DNA of 64,000 nucleotides from Eutreptiella sp. 'Long Island Sound 2002' (Eukaryota > Euglenozoa > Euglenophyceae > Eutreptiales > Eutreptiaceae), in NCBI GenBank assembly GCA_964036045.1, contig OZ038397.1, positions 19,283,742 through 19,347,741 on the forward strand. Direction: 5' to 3'. This document shows, in pieces, positions 1 through 58,991 of this stretch (the first letter of the stretch is position 1; each line of letters begins with the position of its first letter). The notes below the pieces were generated by a model. The model made no database searches. It saw only the letters and a program-made list of their open reading frames with translations, and had not been told where the DNA came from. The translations under genes and the position numbers were made by a program.

Positions 1-3000
1 CTCCCCCACCCGCCCCCGTACCCCGACCCCGTCTCCCGGGTCGGGCACCCCCTCTTCCACCTTCACTTCCAGCGGCACCTTCTCCGGCTCCCTCCTCCGC
101 ACCCCCACGCGGAGTCTCACACCGCCGACCCACACCTTCAGCGCCTCCTTCACGCCGCCCACCGCCTCCCTGTCCCCCACGGAGCTTGTCTCCCCCTCCC
201 CCACCACAACCCTCACAATCACCTCGAGCCTGCGCCTCAGCCCCACACCCACCTTCACCCGCACAGCCTCCCCCCCCACCGCCTCCCTGACCGCCAGTAC
301 CCACACCCACACCCGCACCACCACCCTCTCCGTCAGCCGGACCCCTCCCACCCCCTCCGTCAGCCGCGTCGCCACCCCAACAGCGTCCACGCTCAGCCGC
401 ACGCCCTCGCCCCCCAGCTCCAGCTTCACCCCGTCGCCGTCGCCAACCCGCTCCACCGCCACCCCGACCCCCTCCGCCCACTCTCCCACCGTCAGCGCCA
501 CCCTCTCGCAGTACCTCACCCGCAGTGCCCCCACGCGATCCGAGACCCCGAGCCCACCCACCCGGTCCCTCTCCCCGTCCCTTTCCCCGACGGCCACCAC
601 CCTGACCCCCTCCCGCACCGCCTCCGGCTCTCAGACCCCGTCCCCCCCGACCCTTCCCCCCACCGTCACTGTCTCCCTCACGTCCACCCCGTCCTGTCTC
701 ACCGCATCGCGCAGTACAGTGTCCCTCTCCCGCACCGGCTCCCCTTCCCCATCCCCTTCGGCCTCCCGCTCACGGAGCCTCACTACCACCCCGAGTCCGG
801 GGTCTCACACCCCGAGCCCCAGCCGCTCCGCCGCCCCGACCGCCACCCCCTCCCTCACCCCATCCGCCCCCTCCCGCACCGCCACGACCTGCAGCGCCAC
901 CCCCTCGCGCAATGACACCCGCACCCTCAGCTGCTCCCGCACCCTCACCCCCAGCGGCCCCACTGCCACCCCCAGCGGGCCCTCCCCCACGCAGACCTAT
1001 TCCCGCTCCCTCACCGTGTCCACCCGGACGCAGCCCGAGACCGTCACTCTGTCGATGTCCTTGACCTTCACCTTCAGCCTCACAATCAGCCGCTCCAGCA
1101 CATGGACCCCCTCCCCAGCCTCCGTCTCCAAGTCCGGCAGCCCCACGCCCAGCCCCTCCCCCCCGAGCCCCACCCCCAGCCCCCCCTCTGACTCCCACAC
1201 TGCCAGCCCCACGTGGAGCGGCACTCCTCCCAGCCCCACCTCAATGCTCACCCGCACCCCTTCCCTTCCCTCCGGCACCCCGAGTGCCTCAGGCACCCTC
1301 GACCGCACCCCGACCCCCTCTCTCACCCGCACCGCCTCCGCGAAGTCCTTCACCCCCAGCCCCTCCTTCACCCCCCTGGACACCCTGTCCATTACCTTCT
1401 CCGTCACGCCGTCCCCGACCCGCAGCGCCTCCCTCCCGTCGAAGAGTGTCACCGCGACCGTCTCGCGGACGCCCTCTCACACTTACTCCAACACGACCCA
1501 GTTCACCCCCAGCCCGACTGCCTCGCCCAGCCGCTCCTCCACCGGCTCCCTGTCCCCTTCACCCTCCCTCAGTCCCCCCTCCGTCAGCCCCTCCGCAAGC
1601 GCCAGCTTCAGCCCGACCCCCCCGGGGCCCTCACGCACCCTCACCGTCACCGACAGCGGTGCCACCCCCACCTCCATGACGCCCACAGCCACCAGCACCA
1701 TCACCCCCACCCCCTTCCCGACTTTTACCCCCCGGACCGTGTCCCCCACACGCAGTACCGCCACCCCCTCCCTCTCGCCCTCGATCACACTCACCGGCCC
1801 TGGCTCCTGCACCCCCTCCCCACCTTCCCGCTCCTTCACCCGCAGCACCACCCCCACCCCTCCCACCGGTAGTCCCACCTGCTCGTCTCCCACTCTGTCG
1901 CGCACGGAACCCGTCACGCCGTCCCCGTCCTTCACCCGCACCCACTCTCGCAGTGTGGCGTGCACCGTCACGCCCTCGCGCAGGTCTCGCACCCGATCGC
2001 CAACCCCCACCTCCACTGCAACCACCTCCTTCTCGCGCACCTTCAGTCAAACGTCCCTCTCCATCACCGGCACCGCCCCTGACTCCCCCACCCCCTCCGC
2101 GTCCTACTCGCCCTCGCACACGGGCTCCCCCACCCCGGCCTTCTCACCGACAAAGCCCACCGCCACTGGGTCACCCACTCCTCCCGGGTCCTCCACCTCC
2201 ACGCACAGCCCCAGCGCCACCCCGAGCACAACCCGCACCCCCTCCCCCGCCTCCCCGACCCGCACTTTCACCCCTTCGCCCAGCCACAGCCTCACACACA
2301 CGACCACCTTCTCCACCTCCCCCTCCCCCACCCCAACTTCGCCCCGCACCCCCTCACTGTCGCCGCCCACCCGCACCGAGAGCCTTTCCCTGTCGCCCAC
2401 CCCGGCGTGCACCGCATCCGGCAGCTGGACTTTCAGCGCCACCGCCACGCCCTCGGCCTCCGCCACGCTTACCCCGACCGCCCCCGAGACTTACACAGTC
2501 AGTACGCAGTCGCGGGTCCTCACCCCGACCCCCAGCGCCACGTGCTCCCCCCCGAGCCGCACCGCATCCACCGCCACGCCCGCCTCGAACACCTTCAGCC
2601 CCAGCCGCACGCCACTCCGCACCCCCACCCCCACGTTCACCCGCACCCAGACCCCTTCCGCCACCCAGCTCCGCAGTCCCAGTGGCACCGGCTCTCTGTC
2701 ATGTTCCATCTCAGGGACGGGCTCCCCCAGCCCATCGGCTGCGCGCAGCGGGACCCCGTCCACCTCTGCCTCCGCCACCCCCACCACCACCCGGACCCCC
2801 TCCTCCTCCCAGACCCGCAGCTTCACCTGGACGCACTCCCTCTCCCACACGGTCCCATCCCGATCCATCACCGTCACGTCCGAGACCCTCACGGTCACAG
2901 TCACTCCGTCCCCTGGGAGTGTCACCGACACCGCGTACTCCCCCTCGTCACCCACTGCTACCCCCGGGAGCCCCAGCCCCAGCCGCAGTGCCACTGAAAC

Positions 3001-6000
3001 CTCCGCCACCCTTACGCCTTCCGGCACCACCCGGTACACCGCTTCTCTGACCCGCACCCGCACACTCACCGTCAGTACCGCCACCCCGGGGTCCCTCAGC
3101 CTCACCCCCAGTCCGTCCACGTCTGCCTCCCCGTCCCTCACGGTCAACGCCTCTGCCTCCGGGACCGCAACCACAACCCCGACCCACAACTCCCGCACCG
3201 CCTCCCTCACCACCGCCTCCCGGTCCTACTCCCTCAGCCTCAGCCCCTCGCCAACAGCCCCCCCCTCCCCCCCGTCCTGCACCCCCTCCACCGTCACCCT
3301 CACCTACTCCCCAACGCCCATGGGGTCCCGCACCCTGACCACCAGCCCCAGCCCACCCACTCCAACCGCTGCACCCACCCGCACCCGTTCCTACTCCATG
3401 TCCGGCAGCTCCACACGCACCCCCAGCTGCAGCGCAAGCCCTTCGCCAAGCTACAACCGCACATTCACGCCAACCCAGACCCTGTCTCCCTCCAGCCTTG
3501 CCACACCGACTCCCACCTCCACCGCCACCTGCTCCATCAGTACTCGCTCCGCCTCGTCCTCCTGCACTGCCAGTCCTCGATCTCTGACTTGCAGCCCCAC
3601 GGTCACCTCCTCCCCCACTGGGACCCAATCCACTTTCACCGCCTCCCAGTCGCCCTCGGGCACCCCCTCCGTCTCCCCCTCCCCGCTCTCCGTCTCCCGC
3701 ACCGCCTCCACCGCCTCCTGCACCCCTTCGCTGAGCGCCTCTCTGTCCTTCTCCAGCGCAACGCCCAGCGCCAGCACCTCCGCCACGCAGTCCGCCACTG
3801 CGTCCACCGCCACGCCGGTCTCCGGCTCCCACACCCACAGCCCCACATGCTCCCAGTCCACGACCCCGACGCTCACACCCTCCGTCGCCCTGTCCCCAAC
3901 CCCCACCCCACCCTCCGCCTCCCACAGCGCCTCTCTGTCACCACCGTCAGGCACCATCACCCCCACCGTTTCGGTATGCCGCACCTTTTCTACCACAGAG
4001 TCCCCCCCTTCCGCGACCGTTACACGTGTCCGCACCCCGACTCCCACGCCCCCTTCGCCCAGCCCGTCAGCGAGCGTGACCCCCACCCCAACTTTGTCCC
4101 AGTCACCCTCCCGCACCGTCACCCCCACACGTCACGCCACCGGCTCCGGCTCCCGGAGCCGCTCCTTCACCGCGCCGTACAGCCCCAGCCTCACCCCCTC
4201 GTTCAGCTCGAGCCCCTCGCGCACGGACCCGCGCACCGCCACCCCCTCCCCCACCCCCATCCCGACCTTCTCCCCCTCCCACACATTCACCAAGACATTC
4301 ACGCCCACACCCACACGCACACCGACAGCCACCGTCTCGCCTTCTCCCGTCGGCACTGCCTCGCACACCTGCACCCCTTCCTTCACCTCCACACACTCCG
4401 CGAGCCGCAGCCCCCCCACCGGCAGCCTCAGCCGCTCCGCTTCCCGGACCCGCTCTGCAACTGCCCCTTCTGCCTCCCCCACCGGCACCCACAGCCACAC
4501 CCCGAGCCCTCCCTCCCCCACGCGCTCATCCCCCACGTGCAGCGCCCCGTGCACGGCCACTCCCTCCCTCAGCCCGAGCCCGTCGGCATCCCCCAGCCGA
4601 TCCTGCAGCCCAACGGCCTCCACAGCCACGGCCAGCAGCTCCCCGACGCCCGCCGCGACACTGACCCTCTCCGTCACGGCGTCGCTCTCCGGCACCGGCT
4701 CCCCCACGCCCACCTCCGCAACGCCCTCCGCCGCCTCCCTGTCCCCCACGCACACCCCCTCGCTGACCCACAGCCCCACCGCGACCCCCACGCCCACGCT
4801 CAACGCGACCCTCACGCAGTCCACCCGCTCGGCCTCGCCCTCCGGCCGCAGCCCATCCCCCACTGCCTCCCTCTCGCAGTCGCCCAGTACCCGGTCCCCG
4901 AGCGCCACGCCCTCCGCGACCGGCACCCTCACCGTCGTGCACAGCCCCAGTGTGTCCCGGACCGGGTCCGGCAGTACGACCCCGTCCCCCAGCCGCGACC
5001 GCACCCCAACCCCCAGCCCCGGGACGCGGTCGCGCTCCAGCAGCGTGACCACGACATGGACCCGCAGCCTCAGCCCCACGGGCACCCTCAGCTACACGTC
5101 CACCTTCACCTGCAGCCCCTCCCTCCGGTCCTGGACCCCCACGCGCTCCACCCCCACCACGAGCCCCACGCAGAATGCGACCGAGACGCAGACCGTCTCC
5201 CTCACGCCGCCCGTCTCCCTTTCGGCCACCGCCACCGCGACCCTCAGCCGCAGCCGCGTGCGCACCGCCAGCCCTGCCACCGACTCAAGCTCGCCGACGT
5301 TGTCCCTGAGTACCGCCTCCCTGACCGTGACGGGCACGGCTACACGCACCTCCACCTGCGACAGCACCCGCACCCGAACCCGCACCTTCAGCGGCAGCCC
5401 CAGTGCCTCGCGCACGCCCACGCAGACGACGCGAACCGCGACCCCCACAGACACGGGGCCCGTCTCCGCGTCTCTCTCGCCCTCGCGCACCGCCAGCGCC
5501 AGTGCCTCCGCGACGCCGTCCGGCTCCGGCACTCCCACGCCGGTGCCGTCCATCTCAGGCCCGACCACCACGCGCTCCCGGACGCCGTTGCAGTCGCCCT
5601 CCGCCACCGGGAGCCAGACCCTCTCCCTCACCGGGACCCCCACCCCCAGTTCCTCCCGCTCCGGGGTCCGCACCCCCACGACCTCCGGCACCCACTCCCT
5701 CAGCGCCAGCGTCTCGCTCAGCGCCACGCCCACGACGACGGGCGCCGCCAGCCCCAGCCCCTCCGGCACCCGCACGCCCACACCCTCCGGCACCCGCTCC
5801 TGCTCCACCAGCCCCTCTGCCGCGCCCAGCGCGACCCCTAGCGCCAGCCACAGCCCCACCCCCTCCGCCTCCCTCTCCTTCACCGCATCGTCCGCCACCG
5901 CGTCGGTGCGCTCCCGCTCCCCCGTCCCCACCCTCAGCCCCTCTCCTACACGCACCGTCACCTGGTCCTGCTCCTTCACTGGCACTTGCACCGCCAGCCC

Positions 6001-9000
6001 CTCCGGCAGCACCGCATGGACGCGGACGCTGTCGGCGTCCACCCCCAGCCCCACGGGCACAGGCTCGCCCACCGCCACCCCGCAGGGCAGCCCCTCGCGC
6101 TCCCGCACTCCCTCCGGCACCGTCTTCGGCACGGCCACGTCCTCCGCCACGGCCTCGCTCTCCGGCAGCCCGAGCCGAACCCGGAGTCCCAGCTTCAGCC
6201 TTACAGCGCTCCTCAGTGCTACCGCCGCCACCGTCACCGAGTCTCTCACGCGGCTCCACAGCCCCAGCGCGTCCGCGTCGCCCTCCCTGACGACAACGCG
6301 CACCGGGCCCACGCCGCAGCCCTCGCCCACCCCGTCCCGCACCCTCAGCCTCTCCGGCACTGGCAGCCCCACCCGCACTGCGACCTGCAGCGCGCGCGGC
6401 ACCGGCAGCCTCAGCAACAGCGCCAGTCGCTCTCCGACCGGGTCCCTGTCCACCGTCACGCGAACCCGCAGCCTCACACTGTCCCTGTCCGGGGCCACTC
6501 GCAGCCTGAGCACCGGCACTCCGACCACCACCCGCTCCGCCCCCGCGACCCGGACCCCGACCCTGACCGAGGCCCCGACCCTGACCCCCAGCGCCAGCCC
6601 CGGGCCCTCTGCCACCCCCTCCTACACGCCAACGGGCCCCACGCCCACGGCCGCTCCCACGCAGACCCGGTCCCACACCTTCACGCCGTCGCCACCCTCC
6701 ACCCCCAGCCCCTCGTTGTCCCGCCTGGAGAGCCCCAGCCCCTCCCGCTCCCCAACCGCCTCCACCCGCTCCCCCACACCCTCCGCCACGTGCTCGCCCC
6801 GCTCCCCCTCACAAACCGCCTCCACCGTGTCCCTCACGCCGCGCATCAGCCCGACGCTGACCGCGACGTCCACGTCACCGATGTCCCCGAGTCGCTCGCG
6901 CTCCCCCGGCAGCCGCTCTGCCAGCGCCACCCGCTCCACTGCCAGTCCCTCCGGGTCCCTCTCGCCGTCCCCGACCCGGAGCCCGAGCCCCAGCCCCTCA
7001 GACCTCCCCACGCCCACCCTCTCCGTCTCCCTCACCATTTCCACGCCCTCTGCCTCCCAGTCCCTCAGCCGCAGCCCCTCCCGGTCCGTCTCCCGCTCCA
7101 CCCTCACCGCCACCATGAGCCCCCCCAGCCCCACCCCCACGCGCTCCTGCTCCCCGACTCCCCGTGCGACCCCAACGGCCTCCGTCACCGCCACCCACTC
7201 GCTCTCGACCGTCACTGCCTCCCGCTCCCGCTCTCCGACCCAAACCGCCTCGTGCTCCCCCTCGTACTCCTCCGCGACCCGCAGCCCGGGGACGAGGCCC
7301 GCCACCGCCACCGCCTCCGCGACCTGTTCCCTCAGTCGGACGTGCAGCGCCTCTGCCACTGCCTCCCGCTCCCCCGGGCGGTCGGCCACGGCCTCGCCCT
7401 CGCCCTCGCCCTGCGGCACCCCCACGCCCTCCCGCACCCGCTCCGGCAGCGCCACTCCCTCGCTCACTCCCTCCGAAACCGCGTCCGCGCGCCTGAGTAC
7501 CACCCCCTCCGCCACCGCCACGGCCTCCGCCTCCTCCCTCTCCGGCAGCCCCTCCCCGTCCGGCAGCCCGAGCCTCACCGCCAGGCGCTCCGCCACCCCG
7601 TCTCCCTCCGGCACGCGGTCCGCCAGCGCGTCCCTCTCCCCCAGCGCCTCCCGCACCATCTCCACCGCCTCCGCGTCGCCTGCGCGCACCGCGTCCCCGA
7701 CGCGCAGCGACTCGCTCACCCTCTCGGGCTCCTCCGTCACGCTCTCCCGCAGCGCCAGCCCCTCCGCGACCCGTACCCCCACCACCAAACCCTCCACCAC
7801 CGCGACGGCGAGCCTGACGCTGACCCCCCCGCGCACCCCCACCCCCACCCAGACCCCCAGCCCCCCCTCCGCCTCCTACACCCCAACTCTCAGCACCTCC
7901 CTCTCCTCGAGCCCCAGCCCTTCGCCCCCCAGCCCCAGCCCCAGCCCCACCCAGAGCCCCACGTTCACATCCACACGCACATTCCTCCGCAGCCCGTCCC
8001 TCACAACCTCCTGGACCCCCACCCACACCCTCAGTCCGTCCCGCAACGCCACGCTGTCCCGCAGCCGCACCGCGACGCCCTCCCAGACGTGGTCGTGCTC
8101 CGGCACCCGCTCCACCGCCTCCTCCACGTCTTCCCCCTCCCCCTCCGCCCCCTCGGCCTCCCGCTCCCGCGCCGCCAGTCCGTCCTCCAGCGTATCCCGC
8201 AGCCGTTCCTTCTCCCTCTCCCTCTCGACCCCCTCCGCCAGCCCATCCACCAGCCAGACCCCTCCCACCCCCGCACTCACCCCATCCCCGACGCTCTCGC
8301 CGACCCCCTTCGGCACCCCCACCCCCTCCACCACCGAGAGTCTGAGCTCGACGCCCTCTCAAACCCCTACCACTGCCACCGCAAGCCCCACTCTGACCCC
8401 CACCTGCAGCGCATCGCCGTCCGCGTCCACCGTCAGCTGCACTGCGTCCCTGCCCTCCGCCTCCGTCTCCGTGACCCGCACATTGCCGCTCACTGGCAGC
8501 CCCAGCCACACTCCCACGAGCACTGCCACCCCCACCAGTACGCGTCCCGTCACGCTCTCCTGCTCGACACGCAGCCCCAGCGCCAGCGGCACCTGCACCG
8601 GGACCCGCATGCGCTCTCCCTCATTCTCACCAACCCCGTCCTGTACTCTCACACCGCCATACACTCCCACGCCCTCCAACTCTGCGACCCGCTCCCCCTC
8701 ACCCTCTCGCAGTACCCACACCGCCTCAGCATCCCTGAGCCACACCCCAACGGCCTCCCCCAGTGGCACCCTCAGCCCCCCCAGCCCCTCGATGTCCCCC
8801 CCCTCCGCCTCAGCCTCACCCTCCCCAACGCACGGGATCACCGGCTCGCCCTCCCCTCCCTCCCGCTCGCGCTCCCTCTCGCGCTCCCTCTCGCGTTCCA
8901 GCTCCGCCACGGCCACTGCCAGCCTGTCTTTCACCGGCTCCTCCTACACCCCGACCCTGACCCAATTCCCAACCTCGACCCTCACCGTCACGCGCTCCGT

Positions 9001-12000
9001 CTCTCCCACGCCCTCCAGCGCCTCCGCCTCCGCCTCCCTCACCGGCGTGGCCAGCCCCTCCGGGTCCATTTCCACCACCTCGTCCCTCTCCCTCTCCTCC
9101 CCGTCCTTCACCCCCAGCCAGACCGGGACCCCCACCCCCACGGAGGCCCCTACCCGCACCAGTTCCACGTCCCGGACCCCCAGCCCCACCCACACCCGCA
9201 TGCGAACCCTCAGTTTCAGCGCCTCCCGCAGCCTAAGTGCCTCCGGGACCGCCAGTACCCCCTCCGCCTCCGCCTCCCGCTCCCCGTCCCGGTCCACCGC
9301 CACCGCGACCGCCTCCCCGTCCCCACGCAGCGCCTCCGTCACAATCTCCACGTACACCGCCCCCGCGTCCATCACCCCCACATACTCCCCCACCGCCATC
9401 CCAACCCCCACGAAGTCCCGCACCCTCTCCTGCACCCACACCTTCTCCACAGTGTCGCTGTCGCGCTCCATGACCCCCTCCGCCTCTCCCTCGGCCTCGC
9501 TATCGCGCACGGCCTCCGTCTCCACGGCCACTGCGACGCCCACCCCCAGCAGCCACCGCACCGCGTCACCCGCGACACGATCGCATACCCCCTCACTGAC
9601 CGAGATCCCCTCCCCAAGCCCCACGCTGTCTCGCACTCCGCCGCACTCCTACACCCCGAGTCCCTCCTGCACGCCTAGTCCCACTGTCACCCACTCCGTC
9701 TCCTGCTCGCCCCCCAGCCACACCTCCTCCCTGACCCCCTCCCTCTCGCAAGGCCGCTCTGCCAGTCCGTCCTGCACGCTGTCCCCCACCGCAAGCCCCC
9801 CCTCCCTCTCCCCGTCCCTCAGTGCCCTCCTCACCCCGACCCCTTCGCCCTCCCGCTCCCTCTCCCTCAGCCCCACGGGCAGCCCCACGACCTCCGACAC
9901 CTGCACTCGCAGCACCTTCACTGTCACCCACTCCCAAACCGCCCCCTCGCGCTCTTTGTCCGGCTCCCGCACTGCGTCGCAGTCGTGCTCCACCCGGTCC
10001 CTCAGCCCAAGCCAAAGCGCCCCCTCCGTCTCCACCGCCCGGACCCCGACACCCTCCCGAACCCAGTCCCACAGCCTCAGTTACTCATCCACCCGTACCC
10101 CAACCGTCAGCACCACAGCGACTGCGTCGCGCACGCAAAGCTGCACGCCCTCTACCCGGAGCCTGTCCTGCTCCCGCACCCCCACCCCGACCGCCCCCTT
10201 CACGCCCTCCCCCTCCCCCTCACGGACCGCAAGCCCCACGCGCGGTTCCCAGACCTGCAGCTCCGTCTCGCGCACCCGCACGGCCTCCGCAACGCTGTCC
10301 CTCTCGGCCAGTACCATGACCGCGACACGGTCGCTTTCGAGCACCCCCTCTCCCACGCGCTACTTCACCCCCTCGCCGCCCACCCCCTCTCCGCCCTCCC
10401 TCACCCCCTCCTTCACCAATACCCCGTCGCTCAGCACCGCCTTCACCTTCACGGCCTCCTGCACCAACACCCCCACCCACTCTGTCTCCACCACGGCCTC
10501 AGCATCCAGCCGCACTGCCACCGACAGCCCGGCGCGTACGCCTTCGCCCCCTACCCAGTCCGGCTCCCGCAGCTTCTCCGCACTGGCCTCGCTCTCGCCC
10601 TCACGGACTCCAAGTGGCTCGCACTCCGGCAGCTGCACCGCCACTGCAACGTCCTCTTCCACGCCGCCCCTCACTGCCACCCCTTCTCTCACCGCCACCT
10701 GCTCTGTCTCGACCATCAGCGCCAGCCCCTCTCCATGCTTCACCGCCACAGTGTCCGACAGCGCCTCTCCCACGCGCTCCTGCAGCGTCTCCCCTTCCAC
10801 CACCCCCTCCGGCCTCGTCTCCAGCAGCGTCAGCCGTAGCCCCTCCGCTCCATCCCGGTCTCTGTCCCAGACCCAGTCTTGGAGCCCCGCCAGCTCCCCG
10901 TCACCAACACTGTCCCACACCCCCTCGGTTACCCACTCGCCCTCCCGCACCGCCAGTCCGTCCCGCACTCCGACCCAGACGCTCTCCAGCAGCCTCCTCG
11001 CCACGCCGACGCACTCCCGCACCCGGTCCCCGTCCGGGACCCTGTCCCCCCCTTCGCCCAGCCCCACCCCGACGGGTTCACGCAGCCCCACACCCACGGC
11101 GGCGGCCACGTCCACGGGTAGTGTCACTCGCACGGGGTCGTCGACACGCACCCCGTCCTCGACTCCCACCCGTTCCCCCACGCTCACGGCTGCTTTCAGC
11201 CCATCTGCCAGCGCCAGTGCCACGCGCTCTGAGTCCGGCCCCACCTGCACCCTCACCCCCTCCACTGCCTCTGTCTCCGTCACGATCAGCGAGGATGGCA
11301 GCCGGTCCGGCAGCTCAACCCGCACACTGTCTGGCACCCCGTCCCCATCCACCAGCCCAACGCGCAGCAGCACCTCAACGCCAACCGGTACCAGTACCGT
11401 CACGCAGTCGTCCTCCCCCTCGCTCTCTCACTCAGCCGTCATCACTGCCACCCGCAGCCCCACCGGCACCCTCTCTGGCGGCCCCACGTTCACCCCCAGC
11501 CCCTCGGTCTCGCACACCCACAGTCCACCCTCCCCCACCCACTCTTTCAGCGGCAGTCCCACCGTCGAGAGCACGCGGACGCTGTCCAACACCCGCAGTG
11601 CCACTGCCACGCCCTCCCCAACCGCCAGCCCCAGCGCGTGGCGCACCCCCTCCGGGTCCGCGAGCCCTACCGCGTCCCCGGCCTCCCGATCCCGCAGCGC
11701 ATCCCCCTCCCTCACATCCCTGACGACCACTGCGACGCCGTCGCAGGCGACGCGAAGCTGCAGCCGGACGCTGACCCCCACCGTCTCCTCCTACGCCTCC
11801 CCCAGCCCCTCCCGAACCCCCACCCCCACCCCCACCGCCGCACCCACGACCACTACCACGCCCTCCGCCAGCGCCTCTTGCTCCGTCTCACCCTCCCCCA
11901 GCGCCAGCCCCTCCTTCACGGCGGCGGTCACCCCCACCCCCACCCCCACCGTCAGTAGCTGCACCGCGTCGCGCTCCGCTCCCTCGCGCAGCGCAACCCC

Positions 12001-39000: not shown

Positions 39001-42000
39001 CCTGACCCCCACTACGTCTCCCACCAGCTCCTGTAGCCACACCTGCAGCCGCAGCCCCTCCCTCACCCTCACTTCCATCTGCACCCCTACGGCCAGCCCA
39101 AGTCTGAGCACCCGTAGCCGCACGGCCTCCCTCACCCCCACCTCCTCCCTCTCCGAAACCCCCAGCACCAACGCTACCGACAGCCACTCCCCCTCCCCGT
39201 CCCGCACCCTCAGCCCCTCTGCCTCCGCGTCCCCCACCACCGGCTCGTGCTCCGCGTCCGCCACGCCCGCGAGCCACAGCCTGTCCCGGACCCCCAGCGG
39301 CTCGGCTCGGCGCACGCGCACGCCCAGCGCCACCGTCACGCGCTCCCGGTCGCTGCCCACCACCACCCCATCCCCCACCGCGTCCTGGACAGCGACCCCG
39401 ACCGCGTCCGCAACGGCCGCCCCAAGCCCTTCGAGGTCCCTGACACGGTCCGGCAGCGCAACCCCCACCTGCTCTTTGTCGAGCCGCACCGCGACTCTCA
39501 GCGACAGCCCATCGGTGTCGCGTTCCGTGACGTCCTGCACACGCTCCTTCACCACGACCGCCACGCCCTCCAGCACCCCGTCCCTGCTCTCCCCCACGTG
39601 CAGTACCCGTAGCTTGTCCCCGAGCCTTTCCCCCCGCTCCCCATCCTGGACCGGATCCGGTTCCCCCCACGCGACCACATCTCTCACCGTGTCCGGCACG
39701 GCGTCACCCTCCCTCACGGCATCCGGCACCGAAACCACCCTTTCCATCACCCGCACCCGCACCGCGACCCTCTCCGCATCCCTCTCTATGAACGAGACCC
39801 GCACCCCGTCTGCCTCTCCCACCCGCACGCCCAGCACCACCCATGCCCCCACGCAGACCCACACTGCGTCCACCACCCGCTCCGGCCCCTGCACTCGCTC
39901 CCAGAGCCTCACTCACAGCACCACCCCACCGTTCACCCGCTCCCTGACGGCCACCCTTTCTCTCCGCACCTGCAGCCCCTCCCCGTCCCTGTCCTCTGCC
40001 ACCCGCACAGGGACCAGCAGCCCCACGCTGCCCTCCCGCAGCGGCAGCCTATCGTCCACCCGCAGCCCCACCTCCACCCCGTCCATCTCCCGCACTCGCT
40101 CCTGCAGCCCGACTCCGTCTTCCACGTACTCGTCCCCCAGTGCCACACCCTCCCGATCCATGTCACCCACCTCCACGGGCACACGCACCGGCAGCACCAC
40201 ACGCACCCACTCCCAGTCCGCCGTCGCCACCGGCCCAGGGCCTACCCCCACCGCCACGTCCACCATCTCCATCTCCCGCACCGGAACCAGCACCCCATCG
40301 CCCACAGGCACGCCATCTCCCAGTCCCCCGAGCCCCACTGCCTCGCCCCCAACCCGCACCCCGTCGGCCACCCTGACCCTGTCCCCCTCCACAACCATCA
40401 GCCGCACCCTCACGCGCTCACTGTCGCACTCCTGCACCGCCACTGACCCCAGCCCCTCCGCCTCCGCCACCCATCTCACCCCCTCATCCGTTACCTGGTC
40501 CCTGTCACGGACTGCCTCCAGCGCCTCGCTCTCATGTGGCACCCGCAGCCCCAGCGCAACCCCTACACCCACGCGCTCAGGCACTCCAACGAGTACGGGC
40601 TCCCACACTTTGTCGCCTTCCGCCACATTCAGCCCGTCCACAAGCCGCACGTCCCGCACCCTCAGTCTCACACCCTCCGCCACTCCCTCCGGCTCCCACT
40701 CCCGGTCCCATAGCTCCTCCTCCTCCGCATCCCGCTCCGAGACAATGTCCACCGCGTCCACCAGCTACACGCAGTCGTCCCGCACCCTGACTGCGTCCGG
40801 CACCGCCTCCACACTGTCACGCAGCGTGTCGCCCTCCGCCTCTATGAGCCCATCCGCCCTCAGTCCCACGCCCACTGGCAGCTCGCTGACCCGCAGCCCC
40901 AGCCCTAGCCCCAGCCCTCGGACGGGGAGTCGGTCGCTGACCCCCTCCACCCCCACCGCCACCGCCTCCCAGTCTGTGACCCCCACCCCAAGCCCCGTGT
41001 CCAGGACCCCTACCTCGACCTTAGCCCACACAGTCTCAGTGTCGCAGACCCCCACCAGCGCGACGCCCAGCTACACCCGCACCCCATCCCTCACACACAC
41101 GTCGTCCCCCTCGGGCGGCACGGCCAGCCTTACCCGAACCACCTGCACCCGGACTGCCACGTCGTCCCTCTCGCCCACCCCAACGGGCTCGGTGCAGCTC
41201 AGCCGCACCCGCACCCACACGCCCTCCGGATCCCGCTCCGGCACTCCCACGGCGACTGTCACCGCCAGCTCCTGCACCGCCTCCGTCACCGTCCCCACTC
41301 TGACACCCACGCAGTCCCCGTCCACCCTCACAGCGACACACTCACCGACCCTATCCCCGGGCACGCACACCCGCAGCGCATCGCGCACCCCGACACTGTC
41401 GCGCACGCGGTCCCAGAGCGGGACCGCGACGTCCAGCGCGACCTCCACGCAGACCCCGACCCGGTCCGTCTCCGGCACCGGCTCCTGCTCTGCACCCCAA
41501 AGCCCCTCCCTCACGACCACCCCGACGCTCAGCCCCACAACCAGCGCCTCCTGCTCCACCCCCACACTCACCGCCTCCTTCTCGGACTCTCGGACAGTCC
41601 CCCCCACGGTCACCTTCACGGCGTCCGGCTCCACCTCCCGCACCCACTCCCTCACTGGCACTCATACCCCCAGCCCCCCATCCCCATCATCCAGCACCTC
41701 GGTGACCGGCAGCCCTTCCCCCACGCTGCCTTCACTCACCCCCACGGCCTCTCTCAACGTCACCATCACGCTCTCTCTCTCCACCTCCGCCACGCATTCA
41801 CGGACCCCGTCTCTCTCCCCTCGCTCAGGCACGCCCTCCCTGTCCGCATCCCTCTCCACTCCCAGCGCTTCTCCGTCACCGTCGCACAGCCCGACCCCCT
41901 CCATGTCGGTCTCCACTTCCCCTACGCCCTCCCCCACAGCATCCTCCATCACTGCGTCGCGCACTGTCTCTGTGACGCGAACACACTCTGTCTCGTACTC

Positions 42001-45000
42001 GGGCAGTACTCCTACCGTCTCCTGGACGACCTCCCAGTCGTGCAGCCCCGCTCTGACAGCCTCAGGCTCCCACTCTATGAGCGACACTGCGAGTACCTGT
42101 ACTCTGTCCCCCTCGGGCACCGGCACTCCAACCCCCACTTTGTTTGCATCGGGGACCTGCAGTCGCTCGCTCAGCCCCTCCTGCAGCACAACCGCCACCC
42201 CAACCGGTTCGGCCTCCACCTTCACCGCCTCCACGACAGCCACGGCCTCGGGCCCCGACAGCCCCACGGTGTCCTCCACCATCTCCCGCTCCCCGACCAG
42301 CCCCAGTTTGACGCCGCCGAGCTCGAGCCCCAGCGCTACTCCATCCCACTCCATCTCTCCGTCCCCGCCCACGGAGACCGGCTTCCGCACCGACACACGC
42401 AGTGCCAGTCGCACCACCATGACTGCGACGCCCAGTGGCACCACGAGCTTCAGCCGCACGATCACTCCCAGCCGCAGCCACACCCCGACCCCCTCGCACA
42501 CCCTCTCCCGAACGTCCTCGGGTACCACCACAGGCACCCGTTCCCGCAGCGGGACCAGCAGCGGGTCGTGCTCCGCATTGGCGACCCACACGCCGACCGG
42601 CACTCACTCCTACTCGCCCTCCGACTCCTTCTCGTGCAGCGTCACCTCAAGTGCGTCCCCCTCTATGAGCACGACCCACTCTGCCAGCGTCAGCCGCAGC
42701 CCACGCCGCAGCCCAAGCAACAGCCCCTCCCGCACCGCCTCTGCGTCCCGCTCCTACTCACCCTCTTCAACGGCCCCGTCTCCCTCGCCGTCCGTCACCC
42801 GCTCAGGCAGCCGTTCCGACGTCCTCAGCTCGTCGCCCTCCCTCTCCCTGTCGCACACTCTGTCTCCCTCAGCCCGCCCCACCGTCACCTTCAGCCGCAC
42901 ACGCGCCTCCCGCTCCAGGTCCTCCTCCGCGTCCCATTCCTCAACGCCCTCCCACAGCCTCAGCTTCTCCCGCAGCTTCACCGGCAGCGCGAGTGCGACC
43001 GCCAGCCGATCCTTCAGTCGCACGCGCACAAGCGCAACCGCGTCCCCCACGTCCAGCACCAGTGCCACACACACGTCCACCAGTTCGCTGAGCCCCACCA
43101 CCACCCGCTCCCGCAGCCCCACTCGCAGCGGTTCTGCCACCACATCCCGCACCCCGACCTCGTCCGCCCCCTCCCGGACGTCCACGCAGTCCACCGCTAC
43201 GGCCACTGTCACGCACGCCCCCACTGCCACTTTCTCCGCGTCTGGCTCCGTCTCCACGTCGGCGACCCGCTCTTGCACCCCCACGGCCACCCCCTCCCTA
43301 TCCGGCCCCACGCTGTCGACCAGCATCACCCACACGGACATCCCGACCGGCTCCCTCAGCACAAGCGCGTCTGCGTCCCGCAGCCCCAGCACAACCCACC
43401 GACCCACCCTCAGCGTCACCCACACACAGTCTTGCAGTGCCGAGCTCAGCCCCTCCCTCACCCCCACACCCTCGCCACTCAGTGCCTCCCTGTCCACCCG
43501 CACCCGCACAGTCACCCCCTCGGGCACCCCCACCTCCTCCTTCACCCGCACCGGCACGCCCTCCGTCAACGCCACCGGCAGCGGGACCGCCACTGCCACT
43601 CCTTCCCCGGCGAGCGCGAGCCTCACCCCGACCCCGACCGCAGGCAGCCCAACGCCCTCCACGCCCTCTGCGTCGGGGACCTCTTCCATGTCCACCGCAT
43701 CCTCCACCACCTCCCCGACCGTCACCGCGCGCCACACCACGACTCTGTCTCCTCCGACCGCCTCCCTCACTCCGACCTCCATCACCCCCACCGGGACCCC
43801 CGTCCCCACCCCCTCCCCCACGCCATCCCGTACCCGCACCCATACGTACACCGCGTCCTGGTCCCGGTCGCGCCTCAGCGCCTCGGCCTCTGCCACGGCC
43901 ACCTCCAGCTCCACGCAAACCCACTCCCGCTCGCTCACCGCCAGCAGCGTCTCCCGCACCCGCACCCTTTCCGCCAGCGCAAGCCCGACGGTCTCCCTCA
44001 CACATGTGCCCACGATGACGTACACCCGATCGGGCACCCGCAGCCCCACCAACAGCCTGTCCTCCAGCCGCAGCCCCACCCCCAGCCCCACGCTCTCGGG
44101 CTCGGCGTCTCGGTCATGCACCGCCACGCCAAGCGCCACAAGCCCCACCGGCACGCGCTGCAGCGGCACGGCCACCCCGTCTCGCACCGGCTCAGCCTCC
44201 CCGTTGTTCTCCGCCTCCCCCACCGCCACCGCGACCCGAAGCCTCAGCCGCAGCCCCCCCACCGCCACCCGCACCCGCTCCCTCAGCCCCACCCGCAGCC
44301 CCAGCGCGACCCCCTCCCCCTCCCGGACCCGCCCCACCGGCAGCCCAACCCCCAGTCCCTCGGACACCGGGTCGCCCACCCGCTCCCGCCTCGGCTCCGA
44401 CACCGGCAGCGCCTCCCACACGCGGACCGGCAGTCGCAGCGCCTCCCCCTCGCCCTCCCGATCCCAATCCCCTTCGCCCCCCTCCGCCAGCCCAACGCTG
44501 TCGTCCCTGACGCCGTCCCGCACGGGCAGCCCCAGCGGCACGCCCACGGGCTCGCCCTCCTGCAGCGCCTCCCCCTCCCTCAGCCCCCCCACCGTCACCC
44601 CCTCCACGCCCACCTCGTCCCGGTCCGCCTCGCCCTCGGGGAGCCTCACGCCGCGCCCCACGCGCACCTGGTCCGCCTCGCCGTCGCAGAGTGTCACCTC
44701 CCAGACCCCCAGCCGCACCCCAACCGGCCCCAGCGGAAGCCACACGCTCACGCACCCGCGCTCTGTCACCCGCTCTCTGACCTTCACTTGGAGCCCCGCC
44801 ACCCGCAGTCGGAGCCTGACCACCTGCACCCGCTCACCCACTGCGACCCCCACCGCCCCCACCGCCACCCACACCTGCAGCCCCTCCCCCGTGTCCGGGT
44901 CCCCGACGCTCTCCCCCTCCGCCACCACCACTGCCTCCGCCTTCCGCAGCACCACCTGCAGCCCCTCAGGGCCGTCCCTTACTCGCACCCCCAGCCAGAC

Positions 45001-48000
45001 CCTGGCCCCCACCGCCACTTGCAGCCGCTCCGGCTCCCGCTCCGTCTCCGCCCGCCCCACGGCCACGCGCACCCTCACGCCCTCCGGCCCCTCCCGCTCC
45101 GCCACGACCTGCACCCGCTCGGCGTCCGCGGGCTCCGCGTCCCGCACGGCCACGGCCACGCCCTCGCGCTCGGCCTCCGCGCCCTCCGGGTCGCGCACCG
45201 CAACCCTCACCGCCTCCTTCACGACCTCGTACACCCGGACATTCACGGCCACGGCCACGCTCACCCCCACCTTCGCCCCCACCGCCACATCGTCCCTGTC
45301 GGGCACTTGCTCCGTCACGTGCTCATGGACGCCTTCCCCGCGGACCCTGTCTGCCTCGCGCTCCATGAGCACAAGCCCGCTCAGCACCTGCTCCGTCACT
45401 GCGTCGTACACCCTCTCGCCATCGCAAACCTGGTCAGGAACCCTCAGCCCAACGGCCACGACCTCGCCCTCCCCCCCGTCCGGTACCCTCAGCGCCACCC
45501 CCCCTTCCACGTGCTCTTGCTCGGGCAGCGCTTCGCCTTCACCCACTCCTACCCACCTCCCGAGTCGCACTGCCACATCGTCGCTGACTTGCACACCCAC
45601 ACCCACACCCACACCCTCCTCGACCGCCACCGCCACCCGCCCTCGCTCCGCGACGCCGTCGCTGCGCTCCCCCTCGCCCTCGCGGTCGAACACCCGCACC
45701 CTCTCCCCAACCCCCTCCCTGTCCGAGTCCACGTCCTCGACCCGGGGCCGCTCCCTGTCGCGCAGCCCGACGCCCACCCGCAGCGGCAGCGCGTCGCGCG
45801 TCCCCACGCGCACTGCCACTGGCACCTCCTCCTCCTCTCGATCCCTGTCGTTGTCGTGGACCCTCTCTGTCTCTCCCCCCACCCTCACGCTGACGCCGCA
45901 GCCCACATCCACCGCCACGGCCACATCCACCCCCTCATGCACTCCATCCCTCTCCCCGTGGCACTCCCCCAGCCGCACCCCGACCCTCTCCTTCACGCGA
46001 CCGCTCACTGCCTCCGTCACGAGCCCCCAGACTTGCACTCATTCCCGCTCAACCGGCCGCACCCCTACACCCTCTGCCACCCCCTCTCCCTCCGTCTCCC
46101 ACACCCTCAGCTCCACCCGCCCCACTCTTTCCCCGTCCACCGCGACCCTCACAGTCACGCTCTCCCGGTCCGCCCCACGCACCTCAACGCCCTCCCGCGC
46201 CACCCGCTCCTCATCCATCACCCCCACCCAGACCTCCACCCCCAGCCCCTCCATGTCCTCCGCCACCCCCACGCACTCCTCTCCCTTGACCGCGACCCTC
46301 TCCTTCACCGCCCCCTTCTCGCCGTCATCGTCATGGACCTGCAGCCCGTCCCCATCCCCCCACGTCACCACGTCCGCCACGCCAACCGCCTCCGGTTCCG
46401 CGAGCCGGAGCCCCCGCTCACCCTCGCCCTCCCAGTCCCCCAGCCCCAGCCCCTCCCCCTTCCCGACCCGTACTCGGTCCCTCTCCACAACTGCTACCGG
46501 CACCGCCTCCGCGGCTGCGGTCCCCAGCCCCAGCGCCACCGTAACCCTGACCTATACCCTGAGCCTTTCCGCATCCCGCGCCACCGCATCCCGCAGCCCC
46601 ACCCCAACCCCCACCTTCTCCGCCACCAAAAGCCGCACCCCCATCCCGTCGTCCACTGACAGCCCCACGGCGTCCGCCTCCCCCACGGCCTCTACCTCAC
46701 CGACCCCCCCCACCCGCACCCGCACCCGCACCCGCCCCGCCTCCCCAACCGAAACCCGGACCCCCCCTTCGCAAACCCCGTCGCGGACCCCCACGCCCTC
46801 GTTGCCCACCCGAACCCGCACCGGGACCCCCACGCCCTCCGCCCTCCGCAGCCGCAGCGCCACCGCCTCCCCCTTTGCCACGCCATCGCTCTCGCCCCCG
46901 CCCTCCGCCTCGCCGACCCTGTCCCGTTCGCGCACGCCGCAGCCCACGGCGACGCCCACCGTCTCCCGCCCGTCCCCCAGCGCCAGCCCCTCCCGCAGCC
47001 ACAGCGTCAGCCCCAGCCCCAGCCTGTCCACCGCGACGCCCTCCCCGCCCTCTCCTTCACCAACCGCTTTCGCGCTCACCCTCTCCCCCACCCCATCCAA
47101 ACCCACTGACACCGCGACGCCGTCCACCAGCCCCTCCTTCACGTCCCAGAGCCAGGCCGCCACCCTGACGCAGTCGCCAACACCCACCGCCACCCACTCC
47201 CGCGTGCGCACGCGCTCCTGCACGGGCACCGGGTCCGGCCTGCGCAGTGCCTCCCGCTCCCGCACCGGCACCCTCACCCCCCCCTCGCCCACCCTCCTGC
47301 ACACCCGGACCCCCACCCGCAGCGCCTCGTACTCCGCAAACCTCACCGCAACGCGCTCCCGCTCCTCCACGTTCCCCTCCCCCTCCCCCACCCCCACGCT
47401 CCGGCACACCCCAACCCCCAGCCCCCCGTCCCCCACCCCGTCCCTCACCAGCTGCTCCCCCTCCGCGACCCTCTCCACCGCCTCCCGGTCCCCGTCGCCC
47501 TCCCAGCGCAGCCGGACCCCCACGCCGTCCCACAGCCACACCGCCTCCGCCCCCTCCCTCACGCGGTCCGTCAGCGGCACACCGGGCGCCACTGCCACCG
47601 CCACCCCAGAGCCCCCCACCCCCTCGTCCTGGTCCCGCTCCCTCAGCCCTGCCTCCCGGACCCAGTCCGGAACCGGCTCGGCGTCCGCCACCCTTAGCCC
47701 CCCCACCCGCAGCCGCCAGGACACCGGCTCCCCCACCGGCACTGCCTCGTACACCACCAGCGCCTCCCGCCCCCGCACCGGCAGCCGCACCGTCACCGGC
47801 ACCCACACCCACTCGCACACGCAGACCAGCACCGAGCCCCCCTCGTTCGTGTTCACCGTCACGCGCACGCCCCCCACCCCCACGCCGACGCCCACCCCCT
47901 CACGCGCCCCCACCCGCACTCGCACCGGCTCCCACACGCAGAGCCCTTCTTGGTCCGGGTCGGCATCGCCCACCGCGACGCCGTCCTGCACCGCCAGCCG

Positions 48001-50289
48001 CGACGCGGTCGCCACCCGGAGCCGCACGCGCACGCCCAGCGGCACGGCCAGCCACAGCCCCACGGCCACCGCCACCCCAACCCCCTCCGCCGCCCTGACG
48101 CCCACCGCCTCCGCCTCGGGCAGCCCGACCGCCTCGCGCTCCGGCACCGCGCTGGCCTCCCCCACCGCCTCCACGTGGTCCCTCACACGCACCGCCACCC
48201 GCAGCCCAAGCGCCCCGTCGCACTCCTTCACCCGCACCTCCTCGATCACAGTGACCCGCACCACCACCGTCAGCCTGTCCCCCTCCCCCCGGTCCGCCAC
48301 CGTCACCCGGACCTCCCCCTCCTTCACCGTCACATGGACCTCCCGCACGCACACGCACACGGCCTCGCCCCCCACCCGCACGAACGAGCCCACACCGTCC
48401 CCCACCGCCACCCCCCGCCCCACTTCCACCTTCACCCCGAGCCCGTCCTTCACCCCGAGCCCCACACACACCGTCACCTTCACGGTCTCCCCTCCCACCC
48501 CCGAGCCCACCGAGAAACCCACCCCCTCCACGTACTCCCGCAGCGGCAGCGCCACGCGCACCGCCACCGGCACCCGCACCGCGAACGCCACCCTCACCCT
48601 CACCTTCACCCTCTCCCCATCCGGCCCCACGGCCTCCACGTCTGCCACGGGCACCCCGTCCCCCTCGCCCACCCACACCTTCTCCCGCACCCCCACGGCC
48701 TCCACGTCCCCGTCTCAGACCTGCACATACACCTCCTCCGTGACGCCCCACGACCCCCCAAGCCCCAGCCTCACGGGCAGCGCAAGCCGGACAGCGACGG
48801 CACGGCCTTCCCCCACGTTCCTGGTCCCCACGCTCACCGGCACGCCCTCCCGCTCAGCCACTGCACCCCCCACCCCCACCCTCACAGACCCACAGTCCGT
48901 CTCCGTGACGCGCTCTCATGGCCGCACCCCAACCCGCTCCCTTACCCCGTCCCCGTCCATGACGCCGCTTCCGACCCGCACCTTCTCCGCCACCCGCAGC
49001 CCCCCCTCCCGCTCTGCAACCCCCACGTTCCCGCTCAGCGGCAGCGGCTCCCGGTCCCACTCCGCAACCGGCAGCCGGCCCCCCTCCGGCAGCCTCTCCC
49101 CCACGCGCTCCACGGCCACCGCGTCCCGGACGCCGAGCGGGCGCGCCACCGGCACCCCCACCGCCGGCGCCACCGGCACCGCCACGCCCACCGCGACCCG
49201 CCCCGTCCGCCGCACGGCCACCCCCACCGCCCTCGCCACCCGCTCCGCCACCACCGCCCTCTCCCGGTCCGGCACCCGCAGCCCCCCATCCCCCTCGCAG
49301 TCCCCCGGCGCCGGCCCCACGCCCTCCGCATCGGCCACCGCGTCCCCCAGCACCCCCGGCTCCCTTTCCCTTTCCGCGGCCCCCACTCCCTCAGCCTCCG
49401 CCCCAGCCACACCGACCCGCACCCCCACGCCCTCCCTCTCCCGCACCCCCACCGCCGCCCCCACCGCCACCGCCACGCGCTCCCCCTCCCCGACGCCCAC
49501 CGCCACGCGCAGCCCCGCGGCCTCCGGCTCCGCCACCGCCTCCGCGGTCGACACCCGGACGCAGACTCAGGAGCGCATCCTTGGCATCACCGCCACCGCC
49601 GCCCTCGACCCCACCGCCACTGCCGCCGTCACGGACACCGCCAGCGCCCTCGCGGCGCTCACCTGCACCGCGACCGACACCGCCAGCGCCACCCCGACGC
49701 ACCTGCGCGCGACGCACACCGTCACGCCCACTGCCACGGCCCTGCACGGCACGGCCACCCCCACCGTCGTGCCCACCGCGACCTTCACCGCCTCCGACAC
49801 CCTCTCAACCCTCACGGCCTCTCTGGTGGCCTGGCCCACGGACTCTGCGGTGCCGACCTTCACCGGCAGCAACAACAGCCTGACCCCCACGGCCCCGCCC
49901 CCCTCCTACAACCGGACCTCGACCTTCACCCCGTCCCCCGCGACGCCCAGTCCGAGCGCGAGCAGCGGGGCCACGCCGTCGCGCACGCGCACCCCCTCCG
50001 CGACCGCGTCCTGCGGCGGCAGCCGCACGGAGAGCGCCCCGGAGGGTGACAGCGCGACGCTCACGCCCATGCGGAGCGAGAGCGCGACGGAGGAGGTGTC
50101 GGCCACGGACTCGGGGGGCCTGCTCTACGCCTACGAAACGAACGTGGCGCCCGAGTACAACTGGTCCTTCGCGATCTCGTTCCCGGTCTTCGAGGAGGGG
50201 GCCGCGCTTGGGGCGTCCACGCAGTACATGATGGTGCCCTTGGGCCCTGTGCCAGGCAACGTGTACCAGTCGTCCTTGGCCGTAGGTCT
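1..50289 (+). CDS. Giant exon of a mucin-like Ser/Thr/Pro-rich membrane protein (5' end outside window)
   Basis: One reading frame (codons starting at base 2) is open from the left edge to a TAG at 50291-50293, about 16,760 codons. A GTG at 719 is only the first possible start in the window; the same protein pattern runs upstream of it, so the true start lies outside. Most of the chain alternates Ser/Thr with a variable residue, chiefly Pro, Ala, Leu, Arg, Gly or Val. Lys is very rare. The last 60 or so residues switch to an ordinary folded composition with Tyr, Trp and Phe. I end the exon at 50289, where CT is followed by GTAGGG: joining CT to the first G of the next exon makes a Leu codon and keeps the downstream frame open. 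Other donors in the same phase lie after 50262 and 50268. Surface or matrix location is inferred from composition and the downstream membrane helix. Confidence 0.88.
2..49549 (+). repeat. Alternating [Ser/Thr]-X low-complexity coding region
   Basis: Ser or Thr occupies nearly every second residue, so the DNA has a 6-bp rhythm, mostly TCC, AGC or ACC followed by a variable codon. The X position is dominated by Pro, Ala, Arg, Leu, Gly, Val and Phe, but Cys, His, Tyr, Trp, Gln, Asn and Asp also occur there. I saw no long exact tandem copies by eye; the stretches are diverged from one another. The alternation sometimes slips by one residue. Such a chain cannot form a globular core and would be extended, with many potential O-glycosylation or phosphorylation sites. 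SR-rich patches occur but are mixed with Thr/Pro and are not evidence for a splicing factor. Confidence 0.9.
49550..50110 (+). other. Thr/Ala-rich segment and acidic linker ending the rod
   Basis: Around 49569 an unusual GluArgIleLeuGly run interrupts the Ser/Pro pattern. Until about 49860 the chain is then dominated by Thr and Ala rather than Ser and Pro. A short Ser/Thr/Pro part follows, including an Asn-Ser-Leu and an Asn-Arg-Thr context near 49875-49915. Between about 50020 and 50110 the residues become acidic (GluSerAlaProGluGlyAsp, AlaThrGluGluVal). This looks like the boundary between the extended rod and the membrane-proximal folded region. Confidence 0.7.
50111..50289 (+). other. Start of the membrane-proximal folded region (end of giant exon)
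   Basis: Composition changes abruptly: the chain now contains YAYETNVAPEYNWSF, then Phe/Val/Ile-rich and Met/Val-rich stretches typical of beta strands. AsnTrpSer is a canonical N-glycosylation sequon. The segment probably folds together with residues from the next exons. I do not recognise a named domain. Codons still favour G/C at the third position, so this is the same gene and not a fusion artefact. Confidence 0.65.
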
Positions 50290-55657: not shown

Positions 55658-55687
55658 GTGCGCCGACAGAGCTGCCCAGGGGCAGGG

Positions 55688-57856: not shown

Positions 57857-57891
<35 letters not shown>

Positions 57892-57907
57892 CTCTCTCTC
57901 TCTCTCC

Positions 57908-58925: not shown

Positions 58926-58991
58926 ATGCCAAAGGCTTCGACACCGCCAGTGTGACTCCATCCGATGAGACGCAGTCTCGACTGTCCTCAG
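58926..58991 (+). CDS. Exon 13: short Ser/Thr-rich tail exon
   Basis: Acceptor TTTCTGTCCGGCAG at 58925, donor GTATGC after 58991. Phase 1 on both sides, reading DAKGFDTASVTPSDETQS and RLSS. Its composition continues the acidic Ser/Thr character of exon 12. Confidence 0.7.

What the first reader, a model, noticed from the sequence alone, without database searches (positions are those of the whole stretch)
2..50289. A single uninterrupted coding exon of more than 50 kb
One frame is open for about 16,760 codons and is still open at the left edge. The continuous pattern, the switch to a folded composition just before a splice donor, and the phase-compatible downstream exons argue that it is a real exon. 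It is far longer than the giant exon of human MUC16 (about 20 kb, from memory) and may be one of the longest exons known.
Basis: partly seen in the sequence, partly recalled or inferred. Interest (0 to 1): 0.93.

Follow-up and report, generated by a model that had tools for sequence, protein, structure and literature searches.

The report
Giant exon of surface rod protein
A eukaryote of unknown identity carries one gene segment of about 57,000 DNA letters that spells a single enormous, repetitive rod, probably anchored on the cell surface, and it is one of a family of such giants, several with rods of nearly the same length.

Summary
Frame +1 is open from base 2 to the TAG at 50291-50293 (16,763 codons); the other forward frames hold 201 and 50 stops. 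The window lies in a 2.28-Gb assembly: the exon begins at a predicted acceptor 6,988 bp left of the window and is 57,273 bp long. Eleven or twelve GT-AG introns follow in phase; the tail encodes two Ig-like domains, one membrane helix and a cytoplasmic part. A protein from a short public contig matches the spliced tail (E 3e-58), and paralogs carry it without introns. Six family members have open frames of 17,963-20,727 codons. A copy on C16 aligns collinearly and in frame over about 29 kb. So this is a real exon of a type-I membrane protein with a 19,032-residue (Ser/Thr)-X rod, not the longest of its family. Five rods agree in length within 1.6% (CV), while sampled rod pieces of other members no longer align: a hint of a length-setting role, against which stand one rod 12% shorter and several far shorter open frames. 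Organism, transcription, N-terminus and function are unproven.

The parts
1..50285 (+). Giant exon (window part of a 57,273-bp exon, C20:19276754-19334026): (S/T)-X alternating rod, 19,032 residues in all, then the start of the first Ig-like domain (SGGLLYAYETN...)
   Evidence: no stop in 16,763 codons; predicted acceptor at window -6987; collinear in-frame C16 paralog
50742..50853 (+). exon 2: first half of Ig-like domain 1, continued
   Evidence: phase 1 in, 2 out, no stop; its Cys-Pro pair aligns with CPD in three of five paralogs
51378..51537 (+). exon 3: Ig-like domain 1 ([16 protein letters not shown]); the donor could also be after 51543 or 51549, same frame
   Evidence: aligned with paralogs; C16 match
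   Evidence: aligned with P0001
54092..54266 (+). exon 5: end of Ig-like domain 1 and start of domain 2 (DVWAALPQPVVVHGP)
   Evidence: P0001 alignment E 3e-58
54901..55193 (+). exon 6: Ig-like domain 2 and Ser-Pro stalk
   Evidence: P0001 alignment
56030..56160 (+). exon 7: transmembrane helix (LLSMAAMCCCCLCCFIFIW) followed by CRRRRRR
   Evidence: the only segment of the 902-residue tail with a 19-residue Kyte-Doolittle mean >=1.6, peak 2.46; aligned with P0001
56539..56713 (+). exon 8: cytoplasmic tail (DMVWLDPMEASPNAPINPLEAY)
   Evidence: P0001 and C16 alignments
58354..58704 (+). exon 9: cytoplasmic tail (WDPVIKP motifs)
   Evidence: paralog and P0001 alignments
58926..58991 (+). exon 10: cytoplasmic tail; falls in a gap of P0001
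   Evidence: phase only
59777..59934 (+). exon 11: cytoplasmic tail ([10 protein letters not shown]...RSRWLTMQ)
   Evidence: P0001 and C16 alignments
60782..60829 (+). exon 12: doubtful short exon; exon 11 joins exon 13 in frame without it
   Evidence: phase only; no clear counterpart in the paralog alignment; the P0001 alignment ends before it
62689..63466 (+). exon 13: cytoplasmic tail with the conserved QSWLHRPSWLP motif; the gene goes on beyond it, its stop was not found
   Evidence: C16 match

Best explanation
The window holds most of a real, very large eukaryotic gene. One 57,273-bp exon encodes a 19,032-residue rod in which Ser or Thr takes roughly every second place. It is followed by two Ig-like domains, a Ser-Pro stalk, one membrane helix with an Arg-rich stop-transfer sequence and a cytoplasmic tail: a type-I membrane protein with a micrometre-scale extracellular rod. 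Supported by sequence: the open frame, splice sites at both ends of the exon (predicted, not seen in RNA), the splice-consistent tail, the family, and constraint on frame and alternation. Inferred: the protein is exported (no signal peptide was found), the rod is O-glycosylated at many of its 9,557 Ser/Thr, which holds it extended, the tail ties it to the cell cortex, and the rod builds a surface coat or hair. If extended it would be about 4.8 um (0.25 nm per residue, recalled for mucins) to 6.9 um (0.36 nm) long. The near-equal rod lengths of five members suggest that length itself is selected (a ruler).
For: Open frame and controls. Alternation: 62.2% of rod residues lie in strictly alternating S/T-X runs of 10 or more, against a mean of 1.1% in 50 shuffles; longest run 85 against 18. 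Ser is written with TCN 3,516 and AGY 1,609 times: two codon families that one base change does not connect. Gene model with 12 GT-AG introns and 0 stops. P0001, a protein from a 4,261-base ENA contig, E 3e-58 to the spliced tail. Paralogs: matches at 31 and 33 places in two searches, with rod end and tail in one frame in C7, C9a, C6, C20b and C9b. C16 versus C20 rods: one collinear alignment of 10,182 columns at 47.6% identity, against 35-37% for the 11 off-register ones; 20,840 of 22,223 blastn columns in the same frame; codon-position identities 0.698/0.705/0.596; 17 of 17 collinear exact 16-mers in frame; dN/dS 0.575, off-register 0.71-0.74; tail 0.42 over 594 codons. Rod: pI 12.0, 1,287 K+R against 179 D+E, 1.89 MDa unmodified, highest 19-residue hydropathy 1.19.
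Against: No transcript or protein data. No start codon, signal peptide or N-terminal exon was established: a comparison of 25 kb upstream with the C16 upstream region gave only chance-like matches. In the nucleotide alignment of the two rods only 136 of 456 gaps are multiples of three, no more than chance; I put this down to noisy gap placement at ~64% identity, since 94% of columns stay in frame. Omega of 0.575 is mild and partly compositional. Glycosylation, extension, cytoskeletal attachment and ruler function are inference. Against a strict ruler: C20b is about 12% shorter (<=16,833), six other members have open frames of 3,007-6,251 codons and further ones less, among them C1, whose tail is 50% identical to that of C7.
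Confidence: 0.83

Rival explanations
1. The open frame is a by-product of C-rich low-complexity DNA or of a mis-assembled repeat and is not a gene.
For: The exon is 50-57% C in 2-kb steps, and TRF lists 105 rows of short arrays in the window, rows overlapping.
Against: Markov controls give on average 79-87 stops per frame; only 4 of 377 sampled windows have a tandem copy above 70%; a diverged copy on C16 keeps the same frame; the conserved tail is in phase with the rod.
Confidence: 0.02
2. The exon is cut by unrecognised introns, so that the mature rod is much shorter than 19,000 residues.
For: No RNA data here; the tail of this gene does have introns; several relatives have much shorter open frames.
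Against: The open frame and the high S/T content run through the whole exon; in the C16/C20 protein alignment (9,812 codon pairs) the longest of 197 gaps is 11 residues, so neither copy has a private intron there; five other members are open for 17,963-20,727 codons.
Confidence: 0.1
3. The rod is not a glycosylated coat but an unmodified polycation (pI about 12) that binds mineral, ice or nucleic acid at or outside the cell surface.
For: 1,287 K+R against 179 D+E in the rod and regularly spaced Ser/Thr.
Against: The membrane anchor and Ig-like domains fit a surface coat; Ser/Thr at half of all positions suits O-glycosylation; no ice- or mineral-binding family was found in the tail. The rod itself was not tested for such families.
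Confidence: 0.12
4. The locus is a decaying pseudogene copy of a functional giant.
For: Omega between the two copies is not low (0.575 in the rod, 0.42 in the tail); no start codon found.
Against: No stop in 19,113 codons while the C16 copy differs at dS of about 0.8; splice sites intact.
Confidence: 0.03

Closest known systems
MST3 (the central protein of Chlamydomonas mastigonemes; passages of PMC11015965 seen)
   Same: A single giant rod-like surface protein, N-terminus distal, anchored by its membrane part, with a long intracellular C-terminus (1,600 residues in MST3); rod sheathed by dense O-glycans.
Membrane-tethered mucins such as human MUC16 (recalled, not fetched)
   Same: Ser/Thr/Pro-rich extracellular rod largely in one giant exon, one membrane helix, cytoplasmic tail.
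Giant ORFs of Omnitrophota, e.g. 39,678 residues in V. archaeovorus LiM (passages of PMC10066038 seen)
   Same: Single open frames of tens of kilobases or more for proteins proposed to form a cell coat.
   Different: Bacterial, 42 predicted membrane helices; here a gene with introns and a 19,032-residue S/T-X rod.
PKZILLA giant synthases of Prymnesium (named in passages of PMC12300183; sizes recalled only)
   Same: Giant single-gene proteins of a microbial eukaryote.
   Different: Modular enzymes; here no enzyme domain was found in the tail.

Membership tests
Membrane-tethered mucin (MUC16-like) | long Ser/Thr/Pro-rich extracellular region | tested here: met
   S 26.9%, T 23.3%, P 14.2% of 19,032 residues; extracellular position inferred
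Membrane-tethered mucin (MUC16-like) | near-identical tandem repeats through the rod | tested here: not met
   4 of 377 sampled windows, all in the first 600 bp of the exon
Membrane-tethered mucin (MUC16-like) | SEA domain next to the membrane | tested here: not met
   no SEA match listed at E<=1 in the spliced tail, in the Ig regions of two paralogs or in P0001; two beta-sandwiches predicted instead
Membrane-tethered mucin (MUC16-like) | single membrane helix with cytoplasmic tail | tested here: met
   one segment above the hydropathy threshold in the C20 tail; the best segment of P0001 and of five paralogs is at the same place with Arg behind it
Membrane-tethered mucin (MUC16-like) | dense O-glycosylation | not testable with these tools
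   needs mass spectrometry
MST3 mastigoneme core protein | PKD2-like multi-helix domain | tested here: not met
   one membrane helix in the tail as far as read; no Pfam PKD match at E<=1
MST3 mastigoneme core protein | poly(hydroxy)proline helices | tested here: not met
   Pro 14.2% of the rod, 28.6% of the X places
MST3 mastigoneme core protein | location on cilia and assembly with MST1 | not testable with these tools
   organism unknown
Known Pfam or PDB family | sequence match of the tail | tested here: not met
   best Pfam hit Hemotin 17.3 bits, cut-off 27; no PDB sequence at E<=10 for the 291-residue Ig part
Ig-like fold | beta-sandwich fold of the membrane-proximal domains | tested here: inconclusive

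The most novel reading that the evidence does not exclude
A family of single-exon surface proteins whose rods are held near 19,000 residues by selection while their sequence turns over beyond recognition: a genetically encoded molecular ruler that sets the height of a several-micrometre surface coat or hair, with the alternation of Ser/Thr as its only fixed grammar.
Probability: 0.22. Interest if true: 0.92.

Novelty: new variant of a known kind. Interest (0 to 1): 0.84.

Why it matters
It supports, from sequence alone, coding exons of 57 to about 61 kb in a eukaryote, and a multi-copy family of them rather than a single freak. That makes questions testable about how a cell transcribes, splices, exports and modifies a ~2-MDa rod, and how reading frame is kept in 19,000 degenerate codons. 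If the length conservation holds with more members, it is a clean case of selection on the length of a probably disordered protein independent of its sequence. Gene finders and short-read assemblies may miss such genes: the public protein search, which scored only candidates near the query's length, found one fragment of this family.

Tried and rejected
A 750-residue rod piece: nothing at E<=1e-5 among 7,992 scored, which for low-complexity sequence is no evidence of absence. Viral contigs: no relative of the tail; a pattern from the intron repeat was in neither viral nor genome contigs; phage records had no match to one intron stretch. No tRNA and no Rfam family at gathering score in the window.

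N-terminus: ORFs upstream of the exon were compared with the C16 upstream region; only weak matches, rejected. An ATG at -13445 with a signal-like start was looked at: none of the donor hexamers scanned followed it in the next 330 bases, so I do not claim it; three other hydrophobic ATG starts between -30 kb and -7 kb were listed and not pursued. A first 12-exon model missed exon 4 and was replaced. The gene's stop was sought in 21 kb to the right with three paralog tails: no match.

Are rods of other members collinear with this one? Three pieces (C7 middle, C9a middle, C7 end; about 2,000 residues each) scored against 500-residue steps of the C20 rod: the expected place ranked 4, 8 and 19 of 35; against the C16 rod 11 of 16, 10 of 16 and 15 of 17. 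C7 middle against C9a middle scored 1,987: above the two other C7/C9a pairings (1,897 and 1,913), below the means of either against C20 windows (2,050 and 2,104). True C16/C20 pair: 3,527 against 2,199-2,303 off-register.

Organism: TTAGGG repeats at C20:1 and the end of C6, 2 of 6 contig-end pieces examined; neither of two recalled spliced-leader sequences occurs with up to 4 errors in the C20 (204 kb) and C16 (60 kb) stretches. Identification by 18S did not complete. No lineage is claimed.

Full report
What is there. Frame +1 of the window is open for 16,763 codons, from base 2 to a TAG at 50291-50293. The other forward frames carry 201 and 50 stops over the same stretch and the reverse frames 246, 83 and 744; Markov sequences of four orders carry on average about 79-87 stops per frame and never stay open beyond 1,820 codons. 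The codon positions differ sharply (position 2: 65% C, 5% A). The window is G000:C20:19283742-19347741 of a 2.28-Gb assembly of 2,205 contigs. Reading 120 kb to the left, the frame ends at a stop codon that begins 7,052 bases before the window, and 61 bases inside the frame a pyrimidine-rich acceptor opens the rod. In front of it lie about 3 kb of a G-rich array (GGTTGTGGAGGGCTGTGGAGGG and variants). The exon is therefore 57,273 bp, of which the window shows 50,285. Both ends are predicted from sequence; no RNA was seen.

The protein. The rod of 19,032 residues is 26.9% Ser, 23.3% Thr, 14.2% Pro, 9.1% Ala and 6.6% Arg; acidic residues are rare (179 D+E against 1,287 K+R; pI about 12; 1.89 MDa without sugars). 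Ser/Thr alternates with other residues: 62.2% of the rod lies in strictly alternating runs of 10 or more, against a mean of 1.1% after shuffling. In an extended chain this would put the hydroxyl residues on one face (inference). Apart from its first 600 bp the exon is not a tandem array (4 of 377 sampled windows above 70%).

The family. Two tail searches of the genome listed 31 and 33 matches (several are exons of one gene, and the tool calls its counts of large families lower bounds). Six loci have open frames of 17,963-20,727 codons: the window (19,113), C16:36196530 (19,542), C7:10418184 (20,053), C9:19581563 (19,868, 'C9a'), C20:10835318 (17,963, 'C20b') and C6:129692970 (20,727). Six more have 3,007-6,251: C9:54229360 ('C9b'), C9:33923333, C1:20919173, C24:25576736, C16:4938109 and C14:38498347; the others listed have at most 1,598. 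In C7, C9a, C6 and C20b the tail with its membrane helix runs in one frame to a stop; in C9b and C1 it does so as far as read. In C16 it is split much like ours. So the exon of the window is not the longest open stretch of its family. For C7 and C9a the interior of the rod was read only in three pieces of about 6 kb, each open in exactly one forward frame; for C7, C9a, C6 and C20b the rest relies on the search tool's open-frame count.

Coding constraint. The C16 rod was read for 10,027 codons of the frame. Its best protein alignment to the C20 rod is collinear: 10,182 columns, 47.6% identity, against 35-37% in the 11 other, off-register alignments. Blastn, which knows no frame, puts 20,840 of 22,223 columns (in its four HSPs above 700 columns) in the same frame, with identity 0.698, 0.705 and 0.596 at codon positions 1, 2 and 3; of exact 16-mers, 17 of 17 collinear and 1,136 of 1,138 others are in frame. 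dN/dS is 0.459/0.798 = 0.575 in the rod against 0.71-0.74 in three off-register controls, and 0.385/0.918 = 0.42 in 594 tail codons. Of 9,812 aligned codons, 4,455 are Ser/Thr in both, 4,339 in neither and 1,018 in one only; where both are Ser/Thr the letter is the same in 75%, where neither is, in 35%. Selection thus appears to act on the alternation more than on the letters, though a two-letter class agrees more often by chance. Against this reading: only 136 of 456 nucleotide gaps are multiples of three, and only 35 of 197 gaps in the protein alignment are of even length, so gaps do not visibly respect the two-residue period.

Length. Rods of five members measure 19,032, 19,465, 18,734, at most 18,862 and 19,309 residues: mean 19,080, CV 1.6% (non-rod ends of three members were trimmed by eye, C9a was not trimmed at its start). 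Left out of that count was C20b (at most 16,833); with it the CV is about 5% (hand arithmetic). The choice of the five is post hoc, and C1, whose tail is 50% identical to that of C7, has an open frame of only 5,248 codons for a reason I did not resolve. Yet three ~2,000-residue pieces of C7 and C9a rods showed no clear collinearity with the C20 or C16 rod, nor C7 with C9a at the expected overlap, although the tails of C7 and C9a are 57% identical. Similar length without similar order is what a length requirement would leave; slower change of length than of sequence by chance is the alternative, and only more rods can decide.

Mechanism. Most likely the protein is exported, O-glycosylated along the rod, which keeps it extended (4.8-6.9 um if extended), held by one helix, and tied inside by its tail. 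The nearest worked example is MST3 of the Chlamydomonas mastigoneme, a single giant glycosylated core protein anchored by a membrane domain (passages of PMC11015965). It may work like that or like a tethered mucin, but fails defining features of both (see Membership tests). Giant ORFs thought to coat cells are known in bacteria (39,678 residues; passages of PMC10066038). A survey of proteins above 5,000 residues (passages of PMC11573180 found by a few words) showed no such rod in what I saw.

In print. I saw no description of this family in the listings of nine paper searches.

Noticed in passing
window about -10,000 to -7,050 (near C20:19273742-19276690): About 3 kb of a G-rich tandem array (GGTTGTGGAGGGCTGTGGAGGG and variants) lies directly in front of the giant exon's acceptor, presumably in the intron.
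   Followed up: no
51901-52064, 52947-53110, 63648-63811: Three copies of a 164-nt interspersed repeat in or beside introns (86% and 94% identity to the reference copy); translations of other stretches upstream, and upstream of C7 and C6, show similar peptides by eye, so it is probably a mobile element.
   Followed up: partly
55687-55759 with 60027-60099; 55838-55896 with 60180-60238: Two paired 95% repeats at nearly the same spacing (4,340 and 4,342 bases): a duplicated element in two introns.
   Followed up: no
C7, C9a, C6, C20b, C9b versus C20 and C16: Two gene architectures in one family: tails without introns and tails with about 12; retro-copying or intron gain could explain it.
   Followed up: no
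first 600 bp of the giant exon (window -6987 to about -6390); C16 from about 36255050 downward: Both rods start with fresh tandem copies (best shift 96 nt in C20; a unit of about 36 residues in C16 by eye), and in C20 such copies were found nowhere else in the exon, as if the rod grew at that end. C16 was not scanned further.
   Followed up: partly
L032 (C6:129632200-129635700): The C6 exon seems to start with a non-rod segment ending YNLTLVVTNGVGNTARTVWLDLDIP, which by eye recalls a PKD-type strand pattern; Pfam gave no match above cut-off.
   Followed up: partly
61472-61890: A frame with a Cys/His pattern (CVCGALVGSGNAMREHLKSADHRKR) in the last intron, by eye like a zinc finger of a mobile element; Pfam gave no such match.
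   Followed up: no
57749-58233 and 59349-59550: Long (CT)n and (CA)n microsatellites in introns of the gene.
   Followed up: no
C20:1-400 and end of C6: TTAGGG telomere repeats, so the assembly reaches some chromosome ends; four other contig-end pieces had none in three-fold form.
   Followed up: yes
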